NCBI GenBank assembly: GCA_035079385.1
Contig: JAVHKY010000054.1
Span: 10,207,501-10,271,500 of the forward strand
DNA from: Aspidiotus rigidus
Lineage: Eukaryota; Arthropoda; Insecta; Hemiptera; Diaspididae
DNA length: 64,000 nt
Reading direction: 5' to 3'
Below the pieces are notes generated by a model. That model worked only from the letters and a program-made list of their open reading frames with translations, did no database searches and had not been told where the DNA came from. This document shows, piece by piece, positions 13,173-49,767 of the stretch. How positions within the stretch are numbered: position 1 is the first letter of the stretch; each line of letters opens with the position of its first letter. Position numbers and translations under genes: made by a program.

Positions 13173-13602
13173 TCAGGACACCATATCTGTTGATGAGAGG
13201 AGTGGTGTTTACAAGTTGGAATGTGGGAATTGTGGAGGCTTTTATATTGGTGAGACCAGCCGCTAAATGAAAGTTAGAGTAGCTGAGCACCTGAAGTCTT
13301 AGAAGAAGGGACACTTAGGGGAGTCAGCTTTTGCTGATCATTTGATAAACAGTGGCCACAGCTTCCGCGAGGGATTCGAAAAGCTCCTCCATAAGGAGAA
13401 TTCCTATCGTAAGCGCATCGCCCTCGAGCATATAGAGATAATGCGTCATCTGAACACCGACGGTATCACTGAACTCAACTCGTACATTCCGGAAAATGGC
13501 TTGATCGAACTGGTTTATGATTCACACCGCGATTTTCGCTTGGACAATCCTAATAGCTTGCTCTTCTTTTCTGTTCGTCAGTTGCTTTCATTTCAGGCTT
13601 GA
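13170..13602 (+). pseudogene. PLE-A1 GIY-YIG endonuclease (resumed after B1)
   Basis: A1 homology resumes in the middle of the linker with VDERSGVYKLECGNCGG and FYIGETSR, the GIY-YIG signature. A stop replaces the Gln after ETSR, and a second stop replaces the Trp in the following HLKSW block. The rest (13342-13602) is open, with ADHLINSGHSF, KLLHKENSYRKRIALEHIEI and SYIPENGLIELVYDSH. Compared with PLE-A2, a shift near 13530 carries the frame past the normal stop into the terminal repeat. Confidence 0.8.
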
Positions 13603-13829
13603 AGATGGTTTATTAACCGAAAGCGCTCGTCGTCTAATATATTTTCTGCGGTTGCACTTGTATACTCTCCCTTCGGAGTATTCGTTTTTCGCGTCTATAC
13701 ATGCGCCTTAACTTGAAGTAGGTGTACAAATCTTTTCCAACACAAACACTACGAACACGTATGATACATTCTAACACGACAGATTATACAACTTCTTCTT
13801 TTTTGATGTCATAAGTGAAAAAAAAGAAC

Positions 13830-15375
13830 TCGGAATGAAGGAAAATGTCATGAGCGATTGGATACTCTCAATGCCAGCCTCAAGTACGGTTTGCGATCAT
13901 GTAAAGAAGTATGCCAACAAACAGAGCGCCAGCTCATATCAGCAAATCGATTGGAGCACAGCAAGACATGCCAGAGATGAATGAGATTGTGGTATCTTAT
14001 ATGAATGGTTTTCTCAGCACAATCCATTCGCCGACGCTCAAGATAAAGAGTTAGTTTTTCTCTCAAATGTTATTGTCGCTGGGGCACACGTAAATTGTTA
14101 TAAGGCATACGAGGAGGTGCCTTTATGCAGTTGAAAGTGGACACAGCGCCAAAGTTAAGCAAGTATATGTGATAAACACGTTGCCTATGTAGAGCGCAGT
14201 TACGAACGGAATTCTGCCATTGTATTTGATGGGTATGGAGAAAATGTAAAGGGAAGCCCAAAAGTTGCGGAACAAAAGCGCCAATACAACCGCGTCAATC
14301 GAACTGAGGTTATTGTCGGCTCAAAGACGCTCTTCACAATCAAACAAGATCAGTTTATGGCCAGCAATCGGATCAAGGAACAACTGATCAATCTTCTCAA
14401 ATAGAAATTTGGAGAAAGAAAACACATTGTTAAGCAAGCTGAAGATGACGCGGATCTTCTGATAGTGCAGAGTGCCATTGATACTGCGTCTGCGGGAAGT
14501 CAAGTCGTGCTTGTTGGGGAAGATGTGGACTTGTTGGTGCTATCAGTCGCAAACACTCCTCCCTCGTGCGACGACAAGATGATTTTCCTGAAACCGTCTA
14601 GGGGGAACACTCCACCAAAGTTGTTTTCCATTAAAGAAATTCGCGAATAAAAACCTCATCTTGAAAATAATATATTAATCGCGCATACGATGAGTCAGCG
14701 ATTTATAAGAAAAGTAAAACGTCCTGTATCAACGTCCTACAGGAAGAAGAGCAGTCAAGTGTTGTGGACACATTTAACAATACGAGAAGCTAAAAAAAAA
14801 CAGATTTTTGAAGCTGGCTGCCGATATTGCTTCGCTCTATTTGGCGCTCAGAAGAAATAGATAAATATTTTCACGATTATCGACATAAATTAGAAAAGAA
14901 AGCAAAGAAGAGTATTTTTCTGCACAGAATTTTATTTGAATATTTATTCAATGTTTCGGCCAATCTGGTGGCCTTCGTCAAGACAAAACGAGGCTTGAAT
15001 TCAAATAAAATCCTTTACGGGAAAAGCCTCGTCTTTGCTTTCTTTTCTAATTAATATCCCTACACGTGAAAAAATTCTCTCATCGACATAAATGTTTCGT
15101 CGCAAGCACGTCCTGAAGCTCCCGCCCGACCGACTCCAGAGGCGGTTCGCCATCATAGGTACCGAGCGTAGCACCAGATACTAAAATGGAGAGGCCACTT
15201 GAAGTCAGACTTGGAGTATGGATGGCGCATTGAAGAACTCCTCACAGCGATACCAATAACTGCTCCACCGCTCCAGACAATATCCTAAATTTAGTTCCCT
15301 GCGATTGCGCAAAAGGTCGTTCAACGACTTGTGGCTGCCATAAAACCGGTAATTATCGACCTTTTTTTCATCGAA
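13830..15375 (+). pseudogene. Decayed multicopy protein with PIN-like core and Cys-rich tail
   Basis: Fragments in changing frames give a consistent protein order. First come VMSDWILSMPASSTVCDHVKK and WFSQHNPFADAQDKEL with ANCHVNC-like AHVNCYKAYEE. The middle part (about 14200-14650) reads VFDGYGENVKGSPK, then ADDADLLIVQSAI and QVVLVGEDVDLLVL. Next comes FEAGCRYCFALFGAQKK, and last LVPCDCAKGRSTTCGCHKTG at about 15293-15352. The acidic DADLLIV and GEDVDLLVL pattern looks like a PIN or FEN-type fold. The cysteine tail is typical of a multicopy arthropod protein family whose name and function I do not know. Several stops and frameshifts make it a pseudogene. It may be cargo of the element defined by the surrounding inverted repeats. 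Confidence 0.5.
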
Positions 15376-15726
15376 AATAAAGTCAGGGTGCATATAATTG
15401 TTTTCCACTTCATGTTTTCTTCTTTTTTCAAGGATTGAAATGTTCGGGCCTATGCACCAACTGTCTGAGCGTTTCATAATGAAATGCTGCACCCACAACT
15501 GTCAACGATGAACGGGAAGGCAAAGAGTCAGCTTCTGACTGATGATGGTTACAACGATGTTTATTTTCAGTTTTAATTAATGTATCTGGGGGGAGAGGGA
15601 ATTGTTTTTTTTACTCGTAGCATCAAGAAAGAAGAAGCTTTATAATCTCTAGTCATAGAATTTATCGTACCTATTCCTATTGGAAGAGATACGTAGACCT
15701 ATTTTCAGTTAAGGCGCATATATAGG

Positions 15727-16183
15727 CTGAATTTTGAGCCTAGGCTAATGTGCATATGGTTCATGTTATATAAAATTTTACAAGGAAACTTTTTTATACC
15801 TACACATTTTTTTGTACAAGTCCATAATTTCTAGTTATCGACGAAAATATGGGGATTTACAACGAATTTTCGAAAATAGCGCTCATTCGGTAAAATTTTT
15901 AGGCTAAGGTCTTAGCCTGAAGTGGGGTGGTGAATAGTTGATTTTATGAGAAATTCAACGAGGGATAATTGTGGTAACTTGAAATTTTTCCGTACGATGC
16001 GTATTTTTCGAAAAAACGAAATTGGGGGCTAAAACGCGCCACAGAAAATTTTCCCATCCACTTTGAGGGTGGGGTTTTTTTCGGTTGTTTCTGACACCAA
16101 TCAGGACACATTCCAAAAAACTCCTGCTTTCTATCAAGATTGTCTTCTTTGAGGGTCTAGTTCGCCTATACTACTATAGTGTT
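15727..16183 (-). repeat. Right arm of the ~460-bp inverted repeat pair
   Basis: This is the reverse complement of 8281-8750 with a few small indels. Shared landmarks include the CACATTAGCCTAGGCT end facing inward, GAATGAGCGCTATTT, and TCCTGATTGGTGTCAG near the outer end. It contains no open frame of interest. Confidence 0.8.
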
Positions 16184-19100
16184 TCAATTCCAGGACGGCC
16201 TTGAATATGACCTGTCTGGTGGGAGTGAAGACGTCTGGAGACAGTAGATGATCACCGTGGAAAAGCTGGATCCCAAGCAAAATGGCCATCTCTCAGAGCC
16301 CTATGCGAAAATTCAGTGTTGAGTCTGGCCCCTTGACGTCAATTCCCAGTGCTAATCTTACAGGTCTCACGGTCTTATTCAAGTTACAGAATAGAGGTAG
16401 AGATTCATCGGTGCCATTCATTAGGGACGTAGCCTTACATAGAGTTCAGAAGTAAGGGCCGGGAAGTGGTGGAGAGGCTGTAAAGACATCTATAGCCCCC
16501 AGGTTAAACATTTTTAAAAGTCCAATCTTCTGGTGAAGTTATGACGTCCATTTAGGACCTCAGTAAAAGAAAGCGTACAGTATTATCCTTTTTTTTTTTC
16601 AACCGCATTTATTAGTGGCAGTTTTGAAAGATAGAATTAATATCCAAAAAGCTCAAAAGTACGTTTCTAAAGGATTATCTGCACCGGATTGAGCGAAGGA
16701 GGAAAATAAGAGGAATCAAGTTGAGTTACGTGGATGTACTATAGATTTTCATTTTATTTTTTCTACCATACGTTCAAAGGAAACTGTGTTATTGTTTAAA
16801 ATCCAGTTCGTTGTCTGACAACGGTAAAAGATTTTCCGCAGGGAATGTTTACGCTTCGGATGGTGTCCTGAAATGAATTTTAAATCAATTTGTTTGGTCG
16901 CGAATTCATCATGACGTAAGCCTTCGATTGGTAAAAATTAAATCGCCAGTTCTTGCGGAAGAGATTGCAGATCCCATAGCAGAACTTTCCTTCCTTCGCC
17001 CCCGCGCGTAAGGTTAATCACCTTTCGCCGAATCAGCTCTCGTATCGTTTCTCGCAGTTCCAACTATATGTACGTTATCTCGCGGTGAACTCTCACGACC
17101 TATAACATTTGGAAGCTGCGTGTGCTTTGTGACCGACTTGCGAAATTCAAGCTCGAAAGTCATCTCGTTAATATGTAACTAAGAACGACCTCTCGCAGCG
17201 AGACCTGTCATCGAACGGGAATATCGATTCGCGAATACTAGCGTCACATTCGGGTAGTTATATAACTACTGCCTGCAGTGAAGAATACTAGATGGTGTTG
17301 GAAATGATGCTGCGAAGGGATGAGTTGAAAATAATATCGTGTCCGTTGCAGCGTACAGGAGACGAAAATAAATGTACGTATCGAGCGCGAAAAGGTGAAT
17401 AAACGCTAAACAATTTATTTTTGCGCCGTCGAAATGGACGGTCGGTCGTTTAAAGGCCTCGCGTATTAAGAAACATATAAGCATTTTAATATTGGCACGT
17501 GATTCGTCGAGAAGAATGGTTCGTTAAATTAAAATTGTGAGTTGAGACAATTTTCTTCGACGCTAATTTAATATCGGTCTCATGAAACTATTGTAGGTCC
17601 TTTCTGTGCGTGCTGGATGGTGAGCTAGTGCGATATAAACATGACATTAAAGTACCTGTATAGCCTCTAAACAAATTCTCTTGAACTTTTCGGTTGGTGG
17701 TGCACGAGAAACTATTCCTTTAAAGTTGTGTCTTGGAGTGGTTTCGGTGACCGTCTCGCAAGTAAGGGATTCCAGCTGGAAAGAAGCGACCATTCGTACG
17801 CTGTTCATAGCTTCATAATCCCCGGCCCTTGAAATGACTTCATAATCAATTAAGTTGAAAGTTCAATAAAAATATTTTGTAATCTTATCTTGGTCGAAAG
17901 AGTGTGGGCTAAGTGAGAAAAACTGAAATGATTTGTGAAATTCGTTTTAACAATCTGAATATTACATCCTTATGTCCTTCTGAGTTTGAAGATGTATCCT
18001 AGATGTATGTGTATGAAGAGACAGTCGAAAATTTCCGGGAAGTGTGACAGGTATGGCAGCAGGTGAGAATTATGCTCTGTTAAACTAAGTTTATTCATTC
18101 AGTGGTTAGGACAAGTCTCTCTGGATGACACGGTATCTGACCGCTTGGGTACGGATTATTTCTTCAAGAAAATCTTGCGCAGTCTCGGGATTGTGGACTC
18201 CAGCGAGTGGCCTACGTACGATTTATATAATATTGGACGTTGCTTGTTATGATCGCTTTGTGACCTTGTAGAAAGATAGATTAACGAGTGATCGACTTCT
18301 TTGTTGGAAGGAAAGTTTTAAATTAAAATTACATACGGATCCAGGCGAGGGGGAAGGGGAGGGAAATACTAATTGTGGAACCGTTTGACTTTTTTGCGCA
18401 AAAATCTTTATATTCTCTGGGACGAGAGGAAGAATTTTGGAAAAAATCAGAATGCGACTTTTTCCTGTATTATAATTCGTAATGTTTCCTGAGTTTGGGA
18501 GGGTGAGGGAAATCCTCCTTCCTCCCGTGGATCCAGGCCAGCATAGTGCAGTTATCAAGAAGCTCGATCGAACCCCTTGCTTTCTATGGTTAAAATACTT
18601 CTTCGGTTTACTTCGTTCAAAAATTTGAGTGGTCTTACGATCGGACTTATTTCTCACAATCATACTGTAGGGGTTCCTTGCTCCTATTAATCATCCTCAA
18701 TTTTTCCGAGTCCTTTTTCGATCAACAGAGGGATATTTCAAAGAGTAAACTTGAGTTGAAACCGCAGAAAACATTTTATAAGTACGAGCGCTTTCGGTTC
18801 AAGAAACATCATCTAGAAACAGATGAAAGACATTCCTCCCTCAATAGGCTTAACCGGAGTTCGGGAAACGTTTCCACCCTACATACAATGAAAGCCCGTT
18901 TAATAGAATAATTCGGATTTTGGGATCAAAATCGCCTCGGACGGTTTTCTCCGCATTAGAATGCAGCCGCTTTATGGAATCAACAAATCGCTTATTATAA
19001 TCAAACATCGTCATGAAAAAAAGAAAGAAATAATACTCCACTATAAGTGCCCAACGAAGCGCTTTCTTCTGGTTTCATAAACTTACTCTTGCTACTACTG

Positions 19101-19640: not shown

Positions 19641-19832
19641 AATCCAATATTTAAACGAATCCGTCCCTCCAGGTTACGGCTATCCATAATAAACGCGAAA
19701 GGACGAATACTCCGAAGGGAGAGTAAACAATGCAAACCGCAGAAAAATATACACGACGAGCGCTTTCGGTTAATGAACCATCTTCAAGCCTGAAATGAAA
19801 GCAACTGACGAACAGAAAAGAAGAGCAAGGTA

Positions 19833-20350
19833 TTAAGATTGTCCAAACGAGAAATCGCGGAGTGAATCATAAACCCGTTCGATCAGGCCATCTTCCGGAA
19901 TGTACGAGTTGAGTACAGTGATACCGTCAGTGTTTAGATGACGCATTATCTCTATATGCTCGAGGGCGATGCGCTTACGATAGGAATTCTCCTTATGGAG
20001 GAGCTTTTCGGATCCCTCACGGAAGCTGTGGCCACTGTTTATCAAATAATCAGCAATAGCTGACTCCCCTAAGTGTCCCTTCTTCCAAGACTTCAGGTGC
20101 TCAGCTACTCTAATTTTCATTTGGCGGCTGGTCTCACCAATATAAAAACCTCCACAATCCCCACATTCCAACTTGTAAACACCACTCCTCTCATCAACAG
20201 GTATGGGGTCCTTCAGTCTCACAAACAACCTCTTGACTGTGGTAGGGTTATAAAACGCGGGACTGAAGCCAAAAGGGTGGAGGGCCCGACCCATTCGGAG
20301 GGAGAACTTCCCCAAGAAAGGGAGACTGATCCAACGCAAACGGCGATCAC
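19833..20350 (-). pseudogene. PLE-A2 linker and GIY-YIG endonuclease
   Basis: Read on the minus strand: RWISLPFLGKFSLRMGR linker, DPIPVDERSGVYKLECGDC, then FYIGETSRQMKIRVAEH carrying the YIG tyrosine, the Arg and the His. SAIADYLINSGHSF and IALEHIEI with the metal-binding Glu follow. This is the most complete copy of the A-family nuclease here. It is separated from the RT by a frame break near 20350, so the two halves cannot be made as one protein without frameshifting. Confidence 0.85.
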
Positions 20351-20360
20351 GGATCGTGTC

Positions 20361-21538
20361 TCAGGGGAGGGAGGTGGTGGAGTCAAGAAGGCTCCTCGTA
20401 ACTTTCCTCCGAACCATCACGTCAACATCGACATTGACCCCATTCACTCTGGCCAGGTGTTTTATTGTGAGTAACTCTTTCTTGAAGGCAGACTGACTCA
20501 AAGGAATACGAGTCAGTCTGCGAACTAGGCTGTGAAAAGCATCCATCTTATGAGCAACAGGACCGAACGAACCACCGTAGACTAAAATATCGGTCGTAGT
20601 ATCTTTCCTGTAAATTCCAAACTTATGGGTACCGTCTATTACAGAGATCGATAAATCCAAAAAGTTAATGGAAAATACCCCTATTTCCAACGTAAATTTG
20701 ATGGAAGGGTACCAGGAATTGAGATACTTCAGAAACTCACCAAGGAGATCTGGGGGACCAGTTAGAACGTCATCAACGTACCTGTGCCAATAGTGAATAT
20801 GATTAAGTAACACCTGGTTCGAGGAAAAGAGGTCAAGTTCAAACTTAGACATGAAAATTCCGGAGATGAGAGAGCCCAAAGGTGATCCAATAGGGATCCC
20901 TGCTTCATCAGGGAACTCGAAAAATTTTCCTTCAAATTTACAGTAGTTGGGGGACCAGCAAATATTCAGAAGATCGAAAAATTCCTGAAGCTCATTGTGA
21001 GGAATATTGGCTTTGACGAGTAGCTCACCCATACACTGGATAGTAGCAGCCTTAGGAATATTCGGGAACAAACCAACAACATTAGACGAGCAGATGGTCG
21101 TTCCCGGTGGAAGACTTACATCCTTCAGAATTTCAGTTAAAGAGGCCGAATTCAAGACCGAATGAGGAGATTCAAAATCAATACGATTTTTGAACCAACA
21201 GTCCAGGAATTTGGCAAGAGGTAGGTGGGGGAGGAGACGAAAGAAACAACGGGTCGCATCGGGGTATTGTTCTTATGCACTTTGGGCAGCCCGTAGAGGA
21301 GGGGGGTGGGTGTGGGGTTAGGAACAAGGAGGGCTTGTTTCAAAGCAGGAGTTTTGATAATAGCCTCACTCCTGTTGATGACACTCCTAACTTCTTTAAC
21401 GTGCTTAGGAAAACTGAAATCCTCACTCTCTTTTGCACTACACTGCTGGAGGACTTCATGGACCTTAGAAGAATGGGCCGACTTCTCCATCACCATAATA
21501 GCATTGCCCTTGTCAGCCTTAGTGACGATTAAATCTTA
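20361..21538 (-). pseudogene. PLE-A2 reverse transcriptase (5'-truncated, broken)
   Basis: The copy begins directly at the inverted terminal repeat with a TKADKGNAIMVMEKS block and runs through YGLPKVHK and RPVVSFVSSPT. A frame break follows near 21155-21200. It resumes with NVVGLFPNIP, IPIGSPLGSLISGIF and YWHRYVDDVL. A small deletion after YVDDVL removes three or four residues that other copies have before TGP. INFLDLSISVIDGTHKFGIYRK, LARVNGVNVDVDVMVRRK and SLLDSTTSLP follow. The first catalytic Asp position is Asn, as in A1, so the change was probably present in the source copy. Confidence 0.85.
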
Positions 21539-21884
21539 ATACCTCGCTCTTCTTTTCTGTTCGTCAGTTGCTTTCATTTCAGGCTTGAAGATAGTTTATT
21601 AACCGAAAGCGCTCGTCGTGTATATTTTTCTGCGGTTTGCATTGTTTACTCTCCCTTCGGAGTATTCGTTCTTTCGCGTTTATTAATCCAATATTTCTCA
21701 AACTGTGAGCTGATGTGTGCCTATTCAGATGTATTTTCATGCATCATTTTTTAGCGGGGGACCCGCTATCCCTTTTGTTGGGGGTACTTCCAGGAATTTT
21801 TCGTCCACGAGCGTGAGCGAGGTTGATGACGTCACGAGGTTGATAACGTCACGGAAAGGGGGACTCGGAAAAATTTCGACCTCT

Positions 21885-23010: not shown

Positions 23011-23129
23011 ATAGAAAGGGGATAATGGAGATTTCTTGATTTGACAAAAAATATAGTGTATTACACACCGTATAGATATTATAAGATGAATCGCGAGCGC
23101 GTTTTCGACGGATCGTCATTATCAAGCGA

Positions 23130-23290
23130 ATGGAGAGGAACTTGGAAAAATTTCGACCCTCTGGCCATGTATGATAGGAAGGGGACTTTAAAAAATTCCT
23201 ACGTCCGAGATATATAGAAGGGGGACTTGGAAAAATGTTGACCCTCTCCATACATGATAGGAGGGGGACAGTGGACTCGGGACAGTGGGT
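23130..23290. repeat. Partial copies of the foldback-element unit
   Basis: Three units with the pattern ACTTGGAAAAATTTCGACCC, followed by a short CTC-rich stretch and TGATAGGA, recur here. They match the arrays at 4545-4680 and 4865-5010. No inverted terminal ends are visible. A related piece with TGATGACGTCAC and ACTCGGAAAAATTTCGAC lies at 21820-21885. Confidence 0.65.
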
Positions 23291-26169: not shown

Positions 26170-27236
26170 ACTGGCTAAATGACGAGGATACTCGAAAGAG
26201 TAACACAGAAAAAAGATGCAAAAGACCGCACGATAATTGAAAACACAAGCGCTTTCGGCTAATCAGCCATTCTCGAAGTGTGGAAAGCGACTGAACCCAG
26301 CACTGCATCAAACGAAATCATGGCCGAAGCTACGAGTCATCGAAATATGAATCATTCCCGTAGCAGGAATGTACCTGTTCAAAACGGTCACGCTATTATT
26401 ATTCTGATGTCGGAGGATTTCTATTTCCTCAAGGGCCAGACGCTTGAAGTAAGAGTTTTCCCTATGAAGGAGGACTTCGGACCCCTCTTTAAAATTGTGA
26501 CCACTTTCGATCAAATGATCAGCAAAGACTGACTCCCCTACTTTCTTCTTCCTCCAAGCTTTTTTATGTTCGTCAACTCTAATTTGGAGCTGACGGCTGG
26601 TCATTCCTATATAGACGCTAGGGCAATCTCCACAAGCCACCCTATAAACCCCTCCCCTCTCGGCCACTGGGATAGGGTCCTTAGTTTGACGAAGAGGCTC
26701 TCAACCGTGTTGGCATTATAGTAGGCCGGCCGAAAACCGAAGGGGCGGAGGATACGGCCCAACTCCGATGAAAACTTTCCCAGAAACGGGAGCTTAATCC
26801 ACCGTTTCCTACCATCTTGGCGCAAATCCCGGGGGAGGGAGGTCGTAGAGTCAAGGCATTTCCTTGTGCGCCTATTACAAACCATAAGGTCAACATCAAT
26901 CCTGACCTAGTTGACTCTAGCCAGGTGCTTTATAGTCATCAATTCTTTCTGGAAAGCGGCTTGACTCAATGGGACATGAGTCAAGCGATGTATTAGGCTA
27001 TTAAACGTAGCAACGTTGTGGGCAACAGGTACGATTGACGACCCGTGGATAGTAATATCGGTCGAGGTATTTTTCCTGTAAATACCAAATTGATGGACGC
27101 CGTCAGTAACGGAAATAGACAAGTCCAAAAAGTTTATAACGGAGCCACCAACTTCCAATGTAAATTTTATGAAAGGGTAAATGCTGTTTAAATAATGAAG
27201 AAACTCGCTAAGGAGTTCTGTTGGACCGGGTTCCAT
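26170..27236 (-). mobile_element. Penelope-like element D (5'-truncated)
   Basis: The minus-strand element runs from the second half of the reverse transcriptase to the terminal repeat. The stem-loop motif AGCGCTTTCGGCTAATCAGC, as seen on the plus strand, is at 26249-26278. The 5' end stops abruptly near 27236 within the block after YVDD, and there is no inverted copy of the end. The 3' border is approximate. Confidence 0.75.
26308..27236 (-). pseudogene. PLE-D RT C-terminal part and GIY-YIG endonuclease
   Basis: The first open piece (26907-27236) has FIKFTLEVGGSVINFLDLSIS, DGVHQFGIYRKNTSTDI and LTHVPLSQAAFQKEL. The second (26607-26885) has RKCLDSTTSLPRD and KRWIKLPFLGKFSSELGR. The third (26308-26667) has ERGGVYRVACGDC, VYIGMTSRQLQIRVDEH and LALEEIEILRH, the GIY-YIG nuclease. 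Frame changes fall near 26900 and 26660. The RT active-site box is absent because the copy is truncated 5' of it. Confidence 0.8.
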
Positions 27237-27869: not shown

Positions 27870-27992
27870 TATATGTTACGCTCAATACGCGTAATAAGCA
27901 GACGTGCTGCTCATTACGCGTATTGTGCAAAGTTGGTGCCCATTACGCGTAATCAGCAATATTTTTCTGCCTATTACGCGTATCGAGCATCC
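27870..27992. repeat. TTACGCGTAA palindrome array, left
   Basis: Several ~30-bp units built on CATTACGCGTA or TATTACGCGTA, separated by words such as AGCAGACGTGCTG and TGCAAAGTTGG. The array is an inverted counterpart of 32311-32435 at the other side of the hAT-like element. Confidence 0.8.
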
Positions 27993-32310: not shown

Positions 32311-32435
32311 TGCTCATTACGCGTAATGGGCAGCAACTTTGCACAATACGTGTAATGAGCAGCACGTCTGCTTATTACGCGTATTGAGCAATTTTGCTGC
32401 TCATTACGCGTAATGAGCAATTGCGTGAATTGAGC
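32311..32435. repeat. TTACGCGTAA palindrome array, right
   Basis: Four units with ATTACGCGTAAT or close variants in about 125 bp. One is a perfect 20-bp palindrome, GCTCATTACGCGTAATGAGC, at 32399-32418. The array repeats in inverted order the one at 27870-27992. Confidence 0.85.
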
Positions 32436-34550: not shown

Positions 34551-34748
34551 TTTTGATGACTTACAATTAATTCGGTTCTCTAAAATATGACCAGAAACAT
34601 CTAACGACGACATACTCAACGATTAAAACGTACGGAGTAATTTGAATAGAGCCACAGAAATGAAAAAACACCGGAGCGCTTTCGATTAAAAAACCATTGT
34701 CAACGGGGACGTGAAAGCAACTGAACCAACTCCGGCCGGCAACAAGAA

Positions 34749-35255
34749 CTACCGAGGAGGACATGACTGAACTAGAGAGTCATCACAATGTGAATCATAC
34801 TCGTAAACTAATTCAATCAAACCCTCATCAGGTATGTACCTGTTGAGCACATTTAGGTTATCGTTATTCAGATGGCGAATAATTTCGATGTGTTCTAGCG
34901 CGGTACGTTTGAAAGCCGAGGACTCTCTATGGAGGAGGGACTCGGATCCCTCTATGAAGCCATGGCCAGTGGTAATAAGATGGTCCGCAAAAGCCGAATC
35001 ACCCAATTTCTTCTTTTCCCACGCCTTCCTATGCTCATCTATTCTAATTTTGAGCTGACGTCCAGTCTCGCCTAAATAATTTCCATTAAAATCATTACAC
35101 TCAATTTTGTAAACCCCGCTTCTTTCGACCAGTGGGATGGGGTCCTCTAACTTAACGAAGAAGCTTTTTACAGTGTTCAGATTGTAAAACACTGGCCGGA
35201 ACCCAAATGGGCGGAGGACACGACCTAATTGGGGAGAAAATTTCCCCTAAAACGG
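34749..35255 (-). pseudogene. PLE-B2 inverted end copy: GIY-YIG endonuclease fragment
   Basis: On the minus strand an open frame encodes the end of the linker (VFYNLNTVKSFFVKLEDP) and a GIY-YIG nuclease (GVYKIECNDFNGNYLGETGR). Compared with the plus-strand copy, the zinc-type Cys is Phe and the YIG is YLG, so this copy is diverging. It has no RT and is probably a by-product of the integration mechanism. Confidence 0.8.
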
Positions 35256-35261
35256 GTGTGG

Positions 35262-36889
35262 CGCCAAGGAAAATGCGGATTTCAATTTTCCAAATCACGT
35301 CAAAGAAGTTAGACGTGTTATAAACACTTGTGAATTTATTATTAAGACCCCTAAGCTTAAAAGAATGCTTCTTGAGCCCAATCCAGTGCCGCCCCTCTTG
35401 TACGGGCTACCTAAGGTTCATAAGAGGGACACCCCGATGCGGCCGGTCGTTTCTTTTGTGTCTTCCCCCCCGTACTTCTTGGCGAAATTTTTGGACCGTT
35501 GGTTCAAATCTATGGAATTTGAGTCATCCTACTCTGTGAAGAATTCGGTCTCTTTGGCTAATAAGCTTAAGGATGACATTCTTCCGCCTGATTCAACCGT
35601 ATGCTCCTTTGACGTTGTCGGCTTAATTTCCGAGTATCCCTAGAGCTACTGCCATGCAACATATGGGAGACCTTTTGATCCAATCTAATATCTGTCACGA
35701 AGAGTTGACAGAATTTTTTAATTTACTCAATATTTGTTGGTCTCCCAACTTTCGCAAATTTGAAGGCAAATTTTTCGGATTTCCTGAGGAGGTAGGTATC
35801 CCTATTGGCTCTCCTCTGGGTTCCCTCATTTCGGAGGTTTTCATGTCTAAATTTGAGCTTGATCTCTTTTCCTCTGGTCAGGCGTTTTTGGGTCATATAT
35901 ATTATTGGCACAGGTACGTCGACGATGTGTTGTGTTTGTGGACCGGTCAACGGGATCTCCTTTTGGAGTTTCTCAGGTATCTTAACAGTTTATACCCATC
36001 CATCAAATTCACGTTGGAAGTAGGCGGTTCATCTATAAATTTTTTGGACCTTACTATCTCTTATAGAGAAGGTGCCCACGAATTCGCCATATATAGAAAA
36101 GATACCTCGACCGATATTACTGTCCACGGCAGATCTTTCTGCCCGATTGCTCACAAATATGCCGGTTTTAATAGTTATATCCACCGGTTGACGAGTATTC
36201 CTTTAGGTCAGCTCGCTTTTCAACAGGAGCTCTTGACTATAAAGCACTTGGCCAGAGTGAACGAGATCAGCTTGGATATTGACATGATGGTCCATAGGAA
36301 ATTGACTCGGAAATGCCTTGATTCCACTACATCCCTCCCCCGTAATCCAGCGTCAGATAGTAGGAAACGTTGGATTAGGCTTCCGTTTTTGGGGCAATTT
36401 TCTTCCCAATTAGGTCGTGTCCTCCGCCCATTTGGGTTCCGGCCAGTGTTTTACAATCTGAACACTGTAAAAAGCTTGTTCGTTAAGTTAAAGGACCCCA
36501 TCCCACTGGTCGAAAGAAGCGGGGTTTACAAAATTGAGTGTAATGATTGTAATGGAATCTATATAGGCGAGACTGGACGTCAGCTCAAAATCAGAATAGA
36601 TGAGCATAGGAAGGCGTGGGAAAAGAAGAAATTGGGTGATTCGGCATTTGCGGACCATCTTATTACCACTGGCCATGGCTTCATAGAGGGATCCGAGTCC
36701 CTCCTCCATAGAGAGTCCTCGGCTTTCAAACGTACTGCGCTAGAACACATCGAAATTATTCGCCATCTGAATAACGATAACCTAAATGTGCTTAACAGGT
36801 ACATACCTGATGAGGGTTTGATTGAATTAGTTTACGAGTATGATTCACATTGTGATGACTCGCTAGTTCAGTCATGTCCTCCTCGGTAG
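35262..36889 (+). pseudogene. PLE-B2 reverse transcriptase / GIY-YIG endonuclease
   Basis: The first open part (to about 35643) has FIIKTPKLKRMLLEPNPVPP, YGLPKVHKRDTPMRP and CSFDVVGL. A frameshift near 35625 destroys the FPNIP motif. The second part (35654-36889, 411 codons) has GIPIGSPLGSLISEVF, YWHRYVDDVLCLW with the catalytic Asp pair, and INFLDLTISYREGAHEFAIYR. The linker KRWIRLPFLGQFSSQLGR leads to a complete GIY-YIG nuclease, GVYKIECNDC, IYIGETGRQLKIRIDEH and ALEHIEIIRH, and the frame stops at 36887. The N-terminal third of the protein is missing. Apart from the frameshift, RT and nuclease key residues are intact. Confidence 0.85.
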
Positions 36890-37049
36890 TTCTTGTTGCC
36901 GGCCGGAGTTGGTTCAGTTGCTTTCACGTCCCCGTTGACAATGGTTTTTTAATCGAAAGCGCTCCGGTGTTTTTTCATTTCTGTGGCTCTATTCAAATTA
37001 CTCCGTACGTTTTAATCGTTGAGTATGTCGTCGTTAGATTTGATGACTT

Positions 37050-37995: not shown

Positions 37996-38138
37996 CATTG
38001 AAGGGTACAGGGGAAGAAGGGGTGATGTCCAAACGAAACGAGATGGAGAAACGGTTTCTTCTGAGAGGTGCAAACGATCCAATTGTCCAGCTCGTTTCGT
38101 TTGGACATCACCCATTCTTCCCCTGTACCCTTCAATTG
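37996..38138. mobile_element. Hairpin miniature element, ~143 bp
   Basis: Inverted arms of about 45 bp: AATTGAAGGGTACAGGGGAA type on the left (37996) and its complement ending at 38138. The arms continue with GATGTCCAAACGAAACGA. The ~45-bp loop has no coding capacity. No target duplication could be read with confidence. Confidence 0.75.
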
Positions 38139-42231: not shown

Positions 42232-42350
42232 TGTAGCAACGTTGCATCTCTTCTCATAGAGTAACTGCGATATGCAGCCTACATAGTGTAGTAGGAAAAT
42301 CGTTTTTGTATCAAGCTCCCGTCGACGGTTGAGTTACCTTGTCCTCTACA
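42232..42350 (+). repeat. TRIM 3' LTR
   Basis: This is the direct-repeat partner of 41678-41796, preceded by a purine-rich tract and followed by the AAGT target duplication. Confidence 0.85.
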
Positions 42351-42740: not shown

Positions 42741-42800
42741 GATACAAATTTTTGTCTGGTACGTGTGCAGTCAATGCTCTTGAATAAAGACTCATAGAAG

Positions 42801-43569: not shown

Positions 43570-43609
43570 CATAGAAGTATAATAAAGATGGGGTCAGGTC
43601 GTCTTTGGG

Positions 43610-44161
43610 CAGGGATGGAAAGCTTAAGCCATTGATGGCTTAAGTTAAGTTTTAAGTCAATGTTTTGCCGTTTTTTGTTAAGCCAATATCAGCCAATCGT
43701 TTTTTTCGTCATTAGCTTAAAGCCAAATATCAGCTGAAAGCCAATTTCATTGGCTTAAAATAAAAGCGCTTAAGCTTGCGCACAACAAGAAAAAAAGTTG
43801 AAAGCGGGAAGCCGTGAAGCAGCCGGCAATCGGTAGCTGGCCATCTTATTTTAATAAACTAATGTCGAACGCTTCACTTTCAAATCATAAATCATCATGA
43901 TGAACCCATATCAAATTTCAAAATGATAAAAAAAGGTGGTAAAGTTTTTCATTGGTTGGAGTTGAGCCAATCTATTGGTCTAATTAAGCCGATACATTGG
44001 CTCAAATTGGACCAATGGATTGGCTCAACTTCAGCCAAAAGTCAAACGTCAGAAGCTCATCCGTGGCGCAAAATGATCGCTTATATTTTAAGCCGTTATC
44101 CGCAATCAGCTTAAAGCTAAAAGCCAGTTTTAAGCCAATGACGATTAGCTTTTCATCCCTG
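43610..44161. mobile_element. hAT-type miniature element with 8-bp duplication (family 1, long)
   Basis: The ends are CAGGGATGGAAAGCTTAA at 43610 and its near-complement ending TTTTCATCCCTG at 44161. A perfect 8-bp duplication, TCTTTGGG, flanks it (43602-43609 and 44162-44169). It shares the CAGGGATG end and the dense ATTGGCT/AGCCAAT interior with the element at 38965-39330, so both belong to one family with different internal length. Confidence 0.9.
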
Positions 44162-44696
44162 TCTTTGGGGGAAGAATTTTGGTAAATTACGAGAGTGAGT
44201 ACAAATTGCAAAAAAATCACTGCTTTTGAAGCATCGCTAGTCATCTGTTTCAAGCGATCCAAGTTGTGGATTGTGGAATATGACCTTGCTGTTGGATGGA
44301 GAAGATGATTGACGCTGCTCACGAACCAGTTGTAGGATTTGGTAATGTTGAATGAATGGATTTGTCAATGAATACACTTCTGTTGACCTGTTTGGAATTT
44401 GGGTATTGTTAGAAATTGGTGATGGTGTTGAATGAGGTAGCATATCAAGATTTTTGTACAAAGGACAGACATCCATTAATCGGTAATGTGTTCAGCGGAG
44501 AAGCTTCCATAAGTTGAGAATATAGAAGCGTCAAGATCACGTTTGGTGTGGCGGATGAGCCCACTATAAGATAAGAATTGAAAAAGGATGAAAATATTAA
44601 GTTGTGTGACGTGATCACCGTCTACAAGTTCAAGGAAATATCTAGGATAGTGCTGGAGAACATATGTGTATAAGGCCAGGAAACGGCTGGATTAAC
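44162..44696. other. Unrecognised DNA
   Basis: No gene or repeat is supported between the hAT-type element and PLE-C. Confidence 0.5.
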
Positions 44697-44708
44697 GATC
44701 AGTAGTTG

Positions 44709-47108
44709 TTTATGCAAACTAAGATGACATAAAAATACAATTCCCGTATAAACTGTACTGCGCGAGCGCTTTCGGCGTGAGCCATTGACGAGCGAACAAA
44801 CTGAACTAGGAAAAATAATGAGTGCAAAAACTACATAAAGCGATATCAGAAAGGTGAGAAAACAAGTAAAAACGTTGACCTCAATAAACTCATAATCGAT
44901 CTAGAGACGCAACTCTATGTTTTAACACCAATCTCGCAGAGAAATGTGCTTCGATCGTCTGTTCAAATCCAGTACCAGTCTGTGAACCCAAAACGAAACG
45001 TCTTATCCGCAATCTTACCAAGAAAATACATGACCATGACCTCGTTGTCACCAAGGCTGACAAAGGACAATCACTAATCATCATTAATCCTTCCACGTAT
45101 AACCTCAAGCTTTCAGATTTTTTAGATAGTAGTAATGCACACGCCGACGCTGATTTCAATTTTGTCTCTCATGTCAAATCTGTCCGTGAAGCCATCAACA
45201 ACAGTATTCATATAATACAGACAGAATCCCAGAAGAAGAAAATCCTCATCTCAAACCCCATTCCTCCGCGTTTATATGGTTTAGCAAAAATCCACAAAGA
45301 TGGTTCCCCCGTGAGACCTGTTGTGTCGTTTATTTCAGCTCCAACCTACGAACTCTCAAAACACTTGGACTTCTGGATCAAGTCTCCATGCGCCGTCGTT
45401 AATAGCCAACACTTGATCCAATGTATTGCTGATGTTCCCGTTCCGGAAGGATCCACTTTAATTTCCCTCGATGTCGTTGCTCTCTTCCCAAATGTTCTCC
45501 ACCAACCTTCCATTGAGTTTTTAAAGAGAAAACTATTAGAGATCCATGTTCCCGATTTCTTCATTACTGAGCTTATTCATCTGCTACAAGTATGCCTCGA
45601 TCCTAATTTCTGTAAGTTCCGCGATCAATATTATCGGTTTCCTGATGGAATTGGAGTACCTATGGGGTCTCCACTCGCTTCCACCTTAGCTGAATTATTT
45701 ATGCATAAATTCGAAACGGGAGTTTTTTACCAATAATCCGGAATTCAACAACCACATCATATATTGGAAGCGTTATGTAGACGATATCCTACTCCTTTGG
45801 AATGGTACGGCTGACTCCTTCCAAAATTTGATCGCTAAGCTTAATAATAATTACCATTCTATTAAATTTACTGCTGAGTACGGAGGTAAAGAAATTCCCT
45901 TCCTTGACATCAAAGTGTCTGTTATGGACAATACTCATACTTTCGGCATCTACAGGAAGCCTACGGAGCTCTGATACTTTCATTAACCAAACTTCCTATT
46001 GTCCTGCTGCCCATAAGTATGCCGCTTTTCATTCCCTTATCCATCGCCTTGTTACCCTCCCTCTTTCTAACTCCGAGTTCAATAAAGAACTTTCTATTAT
46101 CCACCAGCTTGCCACTGCCAATGGCTTACACAATCTGGAAATTCATAAATTGGTAAGAAAGAAACGTATAAAAAGAACCCTTGATTCTACCACTGCCCTC
46201 CCCCGCCAGCTGCATGATCGCAAGAAGAAACGGTGGTTCCGTTTGCCCTTCCTGGCTGATCTTTCGTCTAAAATTTCCAAAGTTCAACAACCTCATGGCT
46301 TTCAAGCTGCTTTTTACACCATCCATTCTACCTTGGCGTTCCTCTGTAATCGCAAGGACCCTATCCCTCGCCAAGACAAGAGTAGCGTCTACATTCTCCC
46401 TTGTCACAACTGTGATTCCGTTTACATAGGTGAGACTGGCAGACAACTTCGCACTAGAATACACGAACACCTCGATCATAAATCTTCTAATTCGCCCTTC
46501 TATAAACACCTTGCCACCCATAGGCATATGTTTCGTGTTGGCACTGAAAGACTTCTCCACTTGGAAGATTCTTCCCGTAGGCGCCTAGCTCTTGAAACTC
46601 TTGAATCTGCCAGGTATACTAAAGCAGGTTTCAACGTCCTCAATTATTCTCAACCTAGCCATGGCGTTATTTCTTGCCTTTTCCCCACTGACCTTACCTG
46701 ATTTTATTATTTTATTTCATTTTATTTATTTTTAATTTATTTTGTTTTATTTGTTTTAATTAATTAATTAATTTTATTTATTTAATTTTTAATTTCGATG
46801 TGTTTCCTCTGTTGTGCATTCTGACTCATTTTTACTTTTCCTCGTTCTACCCGTTGATTTTAGTATTTCTTTATCTCCTTTTGTCCATTAATTTCTCGTT
46901 TTTACTTCCTTTCTGATATCGCTTTATGTAGTTTTTGCACTCATTATTTTTCCCAGTTCAGATTGTTCGCTCGTCAATGGCTCACGCCGAAAGCGCTCGC
47001 GCAGTACAGTTTATACGGGAATTGTTTTTTTTTATTTTTTTATTTCATCTTAGTTTGCATAAATATACTACCTATGAACCGTAATTTTATCCAGGATAAA
47101 ATATCAGT
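44709..47108 (+). mobile_element. Penelope-like element C with inverted end copy
   Basis: The plus-strand PLE carries its ~168-bp terminal repeat at both ends in opposite orientation: 44709-44876 and 46895-47063. A 12-bp direct repeat, GATCAGTAGTTG, flanks it (44697-44708 and 47109-47120). A 45-bp extension (47064-47108) lies on the right between terminal repeat and duplication. The coding part differs clearly from families A, B, D and E. This is the most complete element structurally in the window, with only two frameshifts detected. Confidence 0.85.
44924..46701 (+). pseudogene. PLE-C reverse transcriptase / GIY-YIG endonuclease (two frameshifts)
   Basis: The frame starts after the inverted repeat without a clear methionine. 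Blocks are VVTKADKGQSLIIINPSTY, YGLAKIHKDG with RPVVSFISAPTYELSKHLD, and ISLDVVALFPN with the first Asp. GVPMGSPLASTLAELF follows. A frameshift near 45728 precedes IIYWKRYVDDILLLW with the catalytic Asp pair. One extra base near 45965 shifts the frame again before TFINQTSYCPAAHKYAAFHS. The linker KKRWFRLPFLADLSSKI leads to the nuclease: SVYILPCHNC, VYIGETGRQLRTRIHEH and RLALETLESARY. The stop is at 46699. Key residues of both enzymes are present, so repair of two single-base changes would leave an open frame; the copy as it stands cannot make a full protein. Confidence 0.85.
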
Positions 47109-47135
47109 GATCAGTAGTTGATCAGTATTAGATTA

Positions 47136-47497
47136 CACTACTGAACAGCTATCCTGTTACAAGGTTCTATTACGTGATTCTTGGATACTTTTCAACGCTG
47201 AACACGAATCCGTTGTCCATTTTTTTCTAGCACGTCACAATTTTTAGTAATCACGATTAAAGTTCTCGTCTACTTGCCTCGCGCTGTTGCGGAACGTAAC
47301 GAACGTTTTCGATAGCGACGCTGCCATCGTCGATGTGTTTCGCGACGACGCGCGACAAGTAAACGAAAACTTTAATCGTGATGACTAAAAATTGTGACGT
47401 GCTAGAAAAAAATGGACAACGGATTCGTGTTCAGCGTTGAAAAGTATCCAACAATCACGTAATAGAATCTTTGTAACAGGATAGCTGTTCAGTAGTG
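47136..47497. mobile_element. CACTA-like foldback element, 362 bp
   Basis: The ends are CACTACTGAACAGCTATCCT at 47136 and its complement ending TTCAGTAGTG at 47497. The inverted arms are about 135 bp each, almost identical, around an ~80-bp CG-rich centre. TTA lies directly outside both ends (47133-47135 and 47498-47500), a possible 3-bp target duplication. CACTA/TAGTG ends and 3-bp duplications are the hallmark of the CACTA (EnSpm) superfamily. Chapaev-type elements also start CAC but make 4-bp duplications. No coding capacity. Confidence 0.7.
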
Positions 47498-47814
47498 TTA
47501 TAGAAACTGTCCGGAATTGTGCTTTCGCATTTATTACAATTGCATACTGCTCTAGTATATTTGTGGTACTAGTAATAAAGTTCGGTCATTTGTAGCTGTT
47601 CTTCGTTTGAATCCAGTGACCGATGGAACTCACACTATTTCGGTAACCAAAAATCGTCTGGTTTTTCTAAGATGGAGTGAGCTTTACACAAGAGGAGTGT
47701 ACACCCGAAGGTGCAGTGTAGCAAATTATATTGAACCACAAGAAAATCAGCCGCTAAACGTTTTCGGTTAAACAACCATCATCGGAGCGTAAACGAAAGC
47801 GACTGAATCCAACA

Positions 47815-49060
47815 TCAACAAAGACAGAGGGAGTTAACCAGCGAGTCATCGAAGTTTGAATCATTCTCATATATTAGCTCAATCAGACCCTCTTCAGGAA
47901 TGAACCTGTTTAAAACCGTGAAGTCTTCGTTATTCCGGTGTCGTATGATTTCTATATTTTCTAAAGCCAACCGTTTGAAATATGAGTTCTCCCTATGGAG
48001 GAGGGTACCAGAGCCTTCCTTGAATTTATGGCCATTCTCGAGTAGATGATCAGCGAAAGCCGAATCACCCAAATTACCCTTCTCCCACGCTTTTTTATGC
48101 TCCTCAATCCTTATTTGGAGCTGACGCCCAGTCATCCCTATATAAATACCTGGGCAATCGTTGCAGGCTATACTGTATACCCCACTTCTTTCGACTGGAG
48201 GAATCGGGTCCTTCAATTTTACAAATAAACTTTTCACAGTATTGACATTATAAAACGCCGGCCGGAACCCAAAAGGACCGAGGACCCTGCCCAACTTCAA
48301 CGAAAACCTGCCCAAGTAAGGGAGTCTAATCCAACGCTTTCTACTGTTATGCAAATCCCTAGGGAGGGAGGTGGTAGAATCGAGGCATTTTTCGTAAGCC
48401 TCCTTCGGACCATTAAAACAATGTCCACTCGAACTTGGTTCACTCTGGCCAGGTACTTAATCGTCCCTAGTTCCTTCTGGAAAGCATCCTGACTCAAGGG
48501 AATACTAGTCAGTCGATGTATCAAACTATTGAAGGTAGCGATCTTGTGTGCAGCGGGACAGAAAGATGACCCATGGATTGTTATATCAGTTGAAGTTTCT
48601 TTTCTATAAATACCAAATTCATGGACGCCATCTCTAATAAATATGGACAAATCCAAGAAATTTATTAATAATCCGCCAACTTCCAGAGTGAATTTTATGG
48701 AAGGATATCGGCCATTTAAGTGAGAAAGGAACTCACTAAGGAGTTCCACTGGGCCAGTCCACGCGCACAATATGTCGTCTACATACCTATGCCAGTAAAA
48801 GACATAATTTAGAAGTACCCGGCCCGAAGAAAACAATTCGACTTCAAATCTGGACATGAAAACCACCGATATTAATGAGGCCAAAGGGGACCCAATAGGG
48901 ATCCCCACTTCTTCCGGGAATTCGAAAAATTTTTTCCCTCAAATTTACAAAAATTGGGAGTCCAACAAACTCTCAGAAGGTCGAAGAATTCTACCAATTC
49001 CTCATGGGGGACACCAGTTTTTACAAGCAATTCGCCCATATGTTGGATTGCGACAGCCTT
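47815..49060 (-). pseudogene. PLE-E reverse transcriptase / GIY-YIG endonuclease (truncated)
   Basis: On the minus strand the frame starts with IQHMGELLVKTGVPHEELVE (about 49050). A frameshift lies near 48935 (KKFFEFPEEVGIPIGSP). The block VFYWHRYVDDILCAW holds the Asp pair, and INFLDLSIFIRDGVHEFGIYR follows. A frame change near 48390 comes before KRWIRLPYLGRFSLKLGR. The nuclease has GVYSIACNDC, IYIGMTGRQLQIRIEEH and LALENIEIIRH and ends at 47815. The N-terminal half of the RT is missing. Confidence 0.85.
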
Positions 49061-49061
49061 C

Positions 49062-49558
49062 GGCCTTACTTGGGCAGGTTTTCGTTGAAGTTGGGCAGGG
49101 TACTCGGTCCTTTTGGGTTCCGGCCGGCGTTTTATAATGTCAATACTGTGAAAAGTTTATTTGTGAAATTGAAGGACCCGATTCCTCCAGTCGAGCGAAG
49201 TGGGGTATACAGTATAGCCTGCAATGATTGCCCGGGTATTTATATAGGGATGACTGGGCGTCAGCTCCAAATAAGGATTGAGGAGCATAAAAAAGCGTGG
49301 GAGAAGGGTAATTTGGGTGATTCGGTTTTTGCTGATCATCTACTCGAGAATGGCCATAAATTCAAGGAAGGCTCTGGTGCCCTCCTCCATAGGGAGAACT
49401 CATATTTCAAACGGTTGGCTTTAGAAAATATAGAAATCATACGACACCGGAATAACGAAGGCTTCACGGTTTTAAACAGGTTCATTCCTGAAGAGGGTCT
49501 GATTGAGCTAGTATATGAGAATGATTCAAACTTCGATGACTCGCTGGTTAAATCATGA
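49062..49558 (+). pseudogene. PLE-E inverted end copy: GIY-YIG endonuclease
   Basis: The frame is open from LGRFSLKLGRVLGPFGFRP through GVYSIACNDC, IYIGMTGRQLQIRIEEH, GDSVFADHLLENGHKFKEG and LALENIEIIRH to a stop at 49558. It differs from the minus-strand arm at only a few residues. It encodes a full nuclease domain without RT and has no start of its own. Confidence 0.8.
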
Positions 49559-49767
49559 TCTTCTGGTTAACTGCCTCTGTCTTTGTTGATGTTGGATTCA
49601 GTCGCTTTCGTTTACGCTCCGATGATGGTTGTTTAGCCGAAAACGTTTAGCGGCTGATTTTCTTGTGGTTTAATATAATTTGCTACACCTTCGGGTGCAC
49701 ACTCCTCTTGTGTAATATAAATAACCATAAATTAGAACAACGTATCGATTCGATGGAGTGAGCTTTA

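What the first reader, a model, noticed from the sequence alone, without database searches (positions are those of the whole stretch)
13601..49650. A compact stem-loop plus GAAA shared by all five PLE families; possible hammerhead-type ribozyme
Each PLE 3' end carries the same design, read in the element's sense: a purine-rich GAxGA or GAxAA word, T, a 4-bp stem with a 4-base loop (for example GGTTTATTAACC), then CGAAA and GCGCT or ACGTT. Copies lie near 13601 (A1), 13071 (B1), 19760 and 21585 (A2), 26249 (D), 34675 and 36940 (B2), 44765 and 46975 (C), 47757 and 49625 (E): eleven in all. Stem and loop bases differ between families while pairing is kept, which suggests selection on structure. 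Hammerhead ribozymes are known from PLE terminal repeats, and CUGANGA-stem II-GAAA is their core. In family E the core reads CCGATGA, with CGCT upstream able to pair with AGCG downstream as stem I. The match is imperfect: the C3 or U4 position varies and an extra T precedes stem II.
Basis: partly seen in the sequence, partly recalled or inferred. Interest (0 to 1): 0.75.

Follow-up and report, generated by a model that had tools for sequence, protein, structure and literature searches.

The report
Variant hammerhead ribozymes in Penelope retroelements
The repeated stem-loop at the ends of these jumping genes folds like a very small hammerhead ribozyme (a self-cutting RNA) with an altered core, a variant of something already known in this group of elements; whether it still cuts has not been tested.

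Summary
All eleven copies are real; 8 of 11 fit the description letter for letter. Families also have a stem I closing the motif (pair 1.1/2.1 standard in 76 of 79 copies, about 13 state changes on a tree; usually only 3 bp, and D needs a bulge), a pyrimidine at the expected cut site, and a self-complementary stem III that can only form between two copies. That is a minimal type I hammerhead. Its two core oddities have active precedents: U3-A8 for C3-G8 (Perreault 2011), and an extra residue between A9 and stem II (viroid CChMVd, where U cut fastest). It lies in the pseudo-LTR, 81-82 nt before the start codon in two tandem copies; the Anolis PLE has its hammerhead at the same junction. Similar motifs number in the thousands in this genome.

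Against: no Rfam hammerhead match even at E of 10; the double hammerhead is not the predicted minimum-energy dimer; a family with G3.A8, probably dead, moved recently. Verdict: a new variant of a known kind. The fold is well supported; catalysis is untested, and the two primary PLE-hammerhead papers could not be read.

The parts
13066..13110 (+). B1 hammerhead motif; stem I CACUG/CAGUG (5 bp), core UUGACAA+U, predicted cut after 13100
13594..13638 (+). A1 hammerhead motif; stem I GGC/GUC, core UUGAAGA+U, predicted cut after 13628
13663..13680 (+). 3' hairpin TACTC-loop-GAGTA of A1, between motif and element end
   Evidence: sequence; read by eye
   Evidence: E 1e-4
19748..19792 (-). A2 left copy of the hammerhead motif, predicted cut after 19758 (minus strand)
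21580..21624 (+). A2 right copy; first pair of stem II is A.C
19687..21685 (.). A2 insertion with outward-facing inverted arms of 154 bp, 97.4% identical
20361..21155 (-). ORF fragment inside A2, weak RVT_1 match (19.5 bits, cut-off 29.6)
23087..23130 (-). copy of another family (X), truncated, core UUGAUAA+U; weak match
   Evidence: E 0.008
26237..26281 (-). D hammerhead motif, core UCGAGAA+U; stem I CACA/GUGU only with a bulged U, otherwise one pair
26189..26202 (-). 3' hairpin TACTC-TTTC-GAGTA of D
   Evidence: read by eye
34664..34708 (-). B2 left copy of the hammerhead motif
36930..36974 (+). B2 right copy; stem I CCG/CGG, core UUGACAA+U, predicted cut after 36964
34599..37039 (.). B2 insertion, outward-facing inverted arms of 657 bp, 97.9% identical
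11363..13012 (+). B1 ORF, RVT_1 plus GIY-YIG (both below Pfam gathering scores), ends 53 nt before the B1 motif
35654..36889 (+). B2 ORF fragment, RVT_1 plus GIY-YIG (both below gathering scores), ends 40 nt before the motif
45904..46701 (+). C ORF fragment with GIY-YIG domain (22.9 bits, cut-off 22.6)
44754..44796 (-). C left copy; core UCGUCAA+U (A6 is U), stem II 3 bp
46966..47008 (+). C right copy, same letters; predicted cut after 46998
44731..47031 (.). C insertion, inverted arms of at least 124 bp, 97.6% identical (alignment stops in a T-rich stretch, true ends not fixed)
47746..47790 (-). E left copy; stem I CGCU/AGCG, core CCGAUGA+U, stem III AACGUU, H17 U
49614..49658 (+). E right copy; predicted cut after 49648
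47684..49715 (.). E insertion, inverted arms of 657 bp (alignment length), 94.2% identical

Best explanation
The motif is a minimal type I hammerhead ribozyme in the pseudo-LTR of Penelope/Poseidon-like retroelements, lying between the end of one ORF and the start codon of the next. Layout: stem I 5' strand; core Y3 Y4 G5 A6 N7 R8 A9 plus an extra U10; stem II hairpin; G12 A13 A14; stem III as a palindrome (A15.1..U16.1 = AGCGCU, AACGUU or AGAUCU); H17 (C or U), cut site; stem I 3' strand. A palindrome without a loop cannot close on itself, so the active form would be a pair of motifs, either the two copies in one pLTR-ORF-pLTR transcript or two transcripts, probably helped by the element's protein, each cutting the other's strand. 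Shown: the layout, covariation of stems I and II, the 3-8 pattern, the place in tandem elements. Inferred: dimerisation, cleavage, protein help, and the role (trimming or resolving tandem transcripts).
For: Window copies, 9 distinct rows: 84.3% of cells paired against 69.8 +/- 3.9 in shuffles (0 of 500), 19-50% when slid; all five stem I pairs change on both sides; pair 3-8 standard in 9 of 9 (UA 4, UG 3, CG 2). Window plus L001-L058, 65 distinct rows: 85.8% against 73.5 +/- 1.0 (0 of 500), slides 17-43%; 1.1/2.1 paired in 61 of 62; each of the three palindrome pairs of stem III in 64 of 65. The pattern did not cover stem I, yet 29 of its 30 loci match the structured model (L009 is the miss; two pairs of these loci overlap). 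On a tree of flanks, 1.1/2.1 is paired in 76 of 79 with about 13 changes of pair state. Free RNAalifold recovers stems I and II. H17 is C in 60, U in 4 of 65 rows; the last, decayed L048, has a gap there and G next. L004/L005 carry the full CUGAAGA core plus U10. Extra residue between A9 and 10.1: viroid CChMVd is active, A10U cuts 3-4 times faster, C and G are detrimental (PMC3705267, passage). U3-A8 natural and active (PMC3088659 section 8). PLE hammerheads are minimal, lack helix III and may act as dimers (PMC6155905; PMC7761336; passages). PAc has its hammerhead at the pLTR-ORF junction and cleaves only with protein. Tandem copies here: GAAA to ATG 81-82 nt in L057 and L079; two motifs in direct orientation 2578 and 2666 nt apart.
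Against: Rfam: no hammerhead in the window at gathering score or E up to 10, nor on isolated 61-66 nt pieces of L005, B1 and E. A genome search with RF00163 found nothing but rang in no control genome, so it is uninformative. The double hammerhead is not the predicted minimum-energy dimer in any of 8 sequences, and at 37 C it is worse than two monomers for B2, both E copies and D. Free folding also allows a monomer pairing Y4G5 with C15.3G16.3 and U10 with G12. Stem I is paired in only 68-71% of cells overall. Family C has U6. Eight of 65 rows have G3, seven of them with A8, and one C3.A8, breaking the 3-8 pair; L039 of the G3.A8 type has arms 99.0% identical over 1028 bp and A10.1.C11.1 in both, so a copy with a probably dead core moved recently. 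L057 and L079 inserts run 334 and 208 nt upstream of the motif, so those templates were not trimmed at it. Most loci were fetched by patterns fixing G5, A6, R8, A9, U10 and G12-U16.1, so conservation there is partly by selection; the 13 window rows of the layout were found by CGAAARCG alone (which also gave one chance hit), and all 13 have U10.
Confidence: 0.62

Rival explanations
1. The fold descends from a hammerhead but is now kept as a protein-binding or template-positioning RNA element next to the reverse-transcription start; cleavage is lost or irrelevant in most families.
For: The G3.A8 group, whose (A)CCG/CGG(U) could pair through positions 3 and 17, is recently mobile (L039); C family has U6; templates in L057 and L079 were not trimmed; in PAc, hammerhead mutants do not change insertion in vitro (PMC11167929 section 3); arms end 76-84 nt after GAAA in A, B and E, or tails end 12-17 codons into the ORF, close to the motif.
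Against: H17 is a pyrimidine in 64 of 65 rows; 3-8 keeps a standard pair in 52 of 61 rows; the palindrome is kept when its letters change (AACGUU, AGAUCU); these are ribozyme rules that a binding element need not obey.
Confidence: 0.3
2. A monomeric stem-loop with no relation to hammerheads: stem I, Y4G5/CG pairs, U10-G12 plus stem II.
For: This is the fold RNAalifold prefers; Y4 as U or C both pair with G16.3.
Against: The extra pairs have no two-sided change; L052:4114 (AGAUCU) breaks them while keeping the palindrome; E changes 15.2/16.2 together, unpaired in this fold; L004/L005 show the exact CUGAAGA-II-GAAA core. The two palindrome changes rest on 3 of 65 rows.
Confidence: 0.05
3. DNA-level or coding constraint (promoter, endonuclease site, C-terminal codons) or simple shared ancestry without selection on structure.
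For: Copies within a family are near identical by descent; the motif lies in the pLTR, where promoters are expected.
Against: In B1 and B2 the motif lies after the ORF stop; two-sided changes in stems I and II across families exceed all shuffles and slides in percentage paired and score and recur on a tree.
Confidence: 0.03

Closest known systems
Minimal type I hammerheads of Penelope-like elements (Cervera and De la Pena 2014; Lunse et al. 2017; both not held, known here through citing papers)
   Same: pLTR location, tandem copies, missing helix III, dimer mechanism proposed
   Different: Here the core is mostly U3-A8 or U3.G8 with U or C at 4, an extra U10, and a 3-bp palindromic stem III. 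Whether the original papers include such forms could not be read.
Poseidon of Anolis carolinensis, PAc hammerhead (PMC11167929)
   Same: RT plus GIY-YIG element; hammerhead at the pLTR-ORF junction just 5' of an RT start site; optional tail
   Different: PAc has C3-G8, its ORF begins at stem II and RT starts 111-118 nt into the ORF; here the motif lies 81-82 nt before the ATG in two tandem copies and the inferred RT starts are before the ATG or at codons 12-17
CChMVd plus-strand hammerhead (viroid)
   Same: Extra residue between A9 and G10.1; U there is faster than the natural A
   Different: A viroid ribozyme that works without a partner protein; its loop-loop contacts are mentioned; its other core letters were not checked here
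U3-A8 hammerheads of Perreault et al. 2011
   Same: C3-G8 replaced by U3-A8
   Different: Several examples in that paper; here most copies of whole retroelement families
Adineta vaga Penelope elements (PMC3846280)
   Same: pLTRs direct and inverted, pLTR reaching 12 codons into the ORF, 31-bp tail
   Different: The word ribozyme does not occur in that paper's main text

Membership tests
Hammerhead ribozyme, type I | Match to an Rfam hammerhead model | tested here: not met
   none at E up to 10, both strands; no positive control from a published PLE hammerhead was available
Hammerhead ribozyme, type I | CUGANGA-stem II-GAAA core | tested here: inconclusive
   G5, A6 (not in C), A9, G12, A13, A14, A15.1 kept; C3 mostly U, U4 often C, G8 often A, plus U10; full core only in L004/L005
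Hammerhead ribozyme, type I | Stem I pairing across the cut site | tested here: met
   61 of 62 rows at 1.1/2.1 with five pair types; 76 of 79 on the tree set; usually 3 bp; family D needs a bulge
Hammerhead ribozyme, type I | Stem II pairing | tested here: met
   97.3% of cells paired, three of four pairs change on both sides
Hammerhead ribozyme, type I | Stem III with A15.1-U16.1 | tested here: inconclusive
   Only as an intermolecular palindrome; letters mostly fixed by the search patterns, two changed families (3 rows) keep it
Hammerhead ribozyme, type I | H17 not G at the cut site | tested here: met
   C 60, U 4 of 65 rows; one decayed row with a gap and G next
Hammerhead ribozyme, type I | Self-cleavage | not testable with these tools
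   needs transcription and cleavage assay
Penelope-like element, Penelope/Poseidon type | RT plus C-terminal GIY-YIG in one ORF | tested here: met
   both domains in 2 of 4 ORFs, all scores below gathering except GIY-YIG in C; relatives with both domains, such as P0019
Penelope-like element, Penelope/Poseidon type | pLTR direct repeats, inverted pLTR, tail into the ORF | tested here: met
   L079 direct 279-bp repeats, L057 direct plus inverted, 12-17 codon tails

The most novel reading that the evidence does not exclude
A hammerhead subclass that present Rfam models do not pick up, retuned as a set (U3-A8 or U3.G8, pyrimidine 4, U10, loopless 3-bp palindromic stem III) so that it works only as a homodimer with the element's protein, and that persists as an RNP-recognition fold in lineages such as the G3.A8 family whose catalytic core is gone. 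PLEs would then show the step from ribozyme to structural RNA element inside one genome.
Probability: 0.27. Interest if true: 0.68.

Novelty: new variant of a known kind. Interest (0 to 1): 0.45.

Why it matters
The role of PLE hammerheads is still called unknown in a review (PMC7761336, passages). This genome offers thousands of natural variants, with probably competent and probably dead cores side by side in one element group, so the need for cleavage in transposition becomes directly testable. It also gives an abundant natural example of the extra-residue core known from a viroid, and shows that searches with the Rfam models miss at least this group.

Tried and rejected
Type III hammerhead reading (stem III from the conserved upstream GCUUUC pairing with GAAAGC): rejected by reading, since no stem I hairpin fits between cut site and core; the GCUUUC complementarity itself stays unexplained. 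Model R1 was built in a wrong register and not used; one search used the same wrong string and its slide of +2 pointed to the right one, used. Viral-contig scans for canonical hammerheads with and without an extra base (9 and 13 stretches) were not followed up; the loci were not inspected. RF00163 genome search was uninformative. The miRNA, pestivirus and sRNA matches are all below gathering scores; those I looked at lie on inverted repeats or low-complexity DNA. Dimer energies neither support nor exclude the double hammerhead. Not done because the genome search stayed unanswered: counts of AACGTT-type copies, the control for other bases at position 10, and the mapping of full-length 5' ends against the cut site.


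Full report
Observation. The eleven motifs exist at the places given. Eight of eleven match the wording strictly; both C copies read GTCAA with a 3-bp stem and A2 at 21580 has A.C as first stem pair. Two more copies lie outside the list, 18776-18820(-) and 23087-23130(-). The short pattern by itself gives 2-15 rows (mean 5.1) in 20 shuffled windows against 16 here, so the case rests on homology and covariation, not on rarity. In the host assembly (441 Mb, 102 contigs) the exact A 22-mer occurs 832 times, control 0, and the pattern AGCGCTTTCG-N(9-14)-ATTNTC, the complement of the A8 form, 2788 times, control 3. Each call lists only the first 100 places.

What the motif is. Read in element sense the layout is: stem I 5' strand, eight core bases Y3 Y4 G5 A6 N7 R8 A9 U10, stem II hairpin, G12 A13 A14, a six-base palindrome, one pyrimidine, stem I 3' strand. 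On the eleven window copies (9 distinct rows) the named structure pairs in 84.3% of cells, shuffles 69.8 +/- 3.9, none of 500 as high; sliding the partners gives 19-50%. The number of pairs with two-sided change (7) was reached by 38 of 500 shuffles and the number of pair types (15) by 19. On 93 matches, 65 distinct, from the window and L001-L058 it is 85.8% against 73.5 +/- 1.0 and slides of 17-43%, with no shuffle of 500 reaching any of the five measures. Pair 1.1/2.1 is CG 25, GC 20, UA 9, UG 6, GU 1 and broken once of 62. Of the outer pairs 2.4/1.4 is paired in 11 of 59 and 2.5/1.5 in 34 of 62, so stem I is usually 3 bp. In 79 copies placed on a tree built from flanks outside the motif, 1.1/2.1 is standard in 76 with about 13 changes of state by parsimony, the 5' side changing at least 8 and the 3' side at least 10 times; 1.2/2.2 is standard in 65 and 1.3/2.3 in 66 of 79. 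RNAalifold without guidance finds stems I and II.

Bias. Loci L001-L008 were chosen by an exact A-family word and L009-L038 by a pattern that fixes G5, A6, A8, A9, U10 and CGAAAGCGCU; the regions were picked from the same lists, many because two hits lay close together. Positions 3, 4, 7, 17 and stems I and II were not fixed by the second pattern. Conservation at the fixed positions therefore counts only in unselected rows: which asked only for CGAAARCG and two further loose bases, gave 14 window rows, one a chance hit (47289), and the other 13 all have U10, G5, A9, G12, A13 and A14. L009, a pattern hit, does not fit the model. In one search rows with more than 8 gap columns of 50 were dropped and rows identical in motif and flank merged, leaving 79 of 93.

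Core. Position 3/8 is UA 38, UG 9, CG 5, other 9 of 61 rows; since R8 was fixed by the patterns, only the answer of position 3 to it is free. Perreault et al. 2011 report natural C3-G8 to U3-A8 hammerheads and that such pairs are active (PMC3088659, section 8 read). The extra U sits between A9 and 10.1, as the extra A of the CChMVd plus ribozyme; there A10U raised the trans-cleavage rate 3-4 fold and C or G was detrimental (PMC3705267, passage; the original paper was not read). U4 to C and, in family C, A6 to U have no such precedent that I read; A6C is reported as slow. L004 and L005 carry the complete CUGAAGA core plus U10.

Stem III. AGCGCU, AACGUU (E) and AGAUCU (L052:4114) are self-complementary with no loop, so they can only pair between two molecules or two motifs. 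PLE hammerheads are described as lacking helix III and possibly acting as dimers (PMC6155905 and PMC7761336, passages; Cervera 2014 and Lunse 2017 not held). Nearest-neighbour energies do not make the double hammerhead the minimum in any of 8 sequences at 25 or 37 C; at 37 C it is below two monomers for B1, A1, A2b and C and above them for B2, both E copies and D.

Place in the element. L079 holds pLTR-ORF-pLTR: direct 279-bp repeats, 95.7% identical, a motif in each (GAAA at 529 and 3195), and an ORF start 81 nt after the first GAAA whose peptide is PLE-like (MDSRNLEERIRLIENASAAHLQFLFLKFRK). L057 shows the same (82 nt) with a third, inverted motif; its frame is decayed. A peptide pattern found 27 matches among 93 examined (23 distinct places, since loci overlap; L023 is doubtful) in which the sequence after the motif runs into the first 12-17 codons; the L057 copy at 4561 continues into its ORF, the others leave the reading there. 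This resembles the pLTR and tail layout of A. vaga Penelope (PMC3846280, passages) and of PAc, where the tail ends are RT start sites (PMC11167929, section 3 read). Between motif and end there is a hairpin, TACTC..GAGTA in several families and TACAC..GTGTA in E, read by eye. Arms end 76-84 nt after GAAA in A, B and E; in C the alignment stops at 42 nt in a T-rich stretch.

Inverted ends. The four two-ended insertions of the window (A2, B2, C, E) have the motif facing outward at both ends. In the fetched regions matched arms are 61-1028 bp, but those regions were partly chosen for such pairs and one search tested only outward ones. Among the 100 listed of 832 places, neighbours closer than 5 kb are outward 11 times, direct 3, inward 0 (counted by eye). 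PAc extends both target strands, which would give such ends; that link is inference, and the A. vaga paper favours self-priming.

Does it cut. Not testable here. Against a need for cutting: the G3.A8 group (L014, L015, L020, L022, L029, L039, L052, and L050 in a gapped alignment) can pair (A)CCG with CGG(U) through positions 3 and 17; L039 has arms 99.0% identical over 1028 bp and both arms also carry A10.1.C11.1, so its template very probably had a dead core and moved recently, perhaps in trans. Inserts L057 and L079 begin 334 and 208 nt upstream of the motif, so their templates were not trimmed there. PAc hammerhead mutants insert normally in vitro. For cutting: H17 is a pyrimidine in 64 of 65 rows and the 3-8 pair is kept in 52 of 61.

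Rfam. No hammerhead at gathering score or E up to 10 in the window or on three isolated pieces. I had no published PLE hammerhead as a positive control, so this shows that the models do not pick up the group, not that the fold is absent.

Print. Six searches of the held library (listings, with passages of eleven papers read) brought up no description of this core combination in PLEs; the two primary papers are not in that library, so novelty of the combination is unproven.

Noticed in passing
13585-13640, 36921-36976, 49605-49660 and other copies: A conserved GCUUUC (E: CGUUU) lies some 10-20 nt upstream of the core and is complementary to GAAAGC (AAACG); it could mask the catalytic strand. 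Unexplained.
   Followed up: partly
window 13663-13680, 26189-26202; several of L001-L038: Second conserved hairpin TACTC..GAGTA (E: TACAC..GTGTA) and a TGYGGYT word between motif and element end, near the inferred RT start.
   Followed up: partly
19687-21685, 34599-37039, 44731-47031, 47684-49715: The four two-ended insertions of the window have outward-facing inverted ends of variable arm length.
   Followed up: partly
window 14957(-): Another hammerhead-like stretch, TTGACGA-A-GGCCA..TGGCC-GAAACATTG, with A in place of the extra U and no palindrome; not matched by model R2; may be another PLE family.
   Followed up: no
window 4550-5005, 23134-23259; also L005, L010, L011, L020, L029, L036, L050: A minisatellite of about 43 bp (GGGGGACTTGG..CCATATATGATA) matches in 13 of 59 sources; by eye PLE ends abut it in X, L011, L020 and L050.
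   Followed up: partly
window 27898-27968, 32318-32412, 38005-38129, 47217-47415: Inverted repeats that give sub-threshold miRNA matches; look like small palindromic repeats or MITEs.
   Followed up: no
L009 around 1500: C-like family end (MSRRNFVEERI start, GAAAGCGCTCGCGC kept) whose core and stem II no longer fit the hammerhead layout.
   Followed up: no
L043 2391-2434(+): Copy whose upstream homology to its partner arm stops near the 5' side of stem I; possible template switch at the motif.
   Followed up: no
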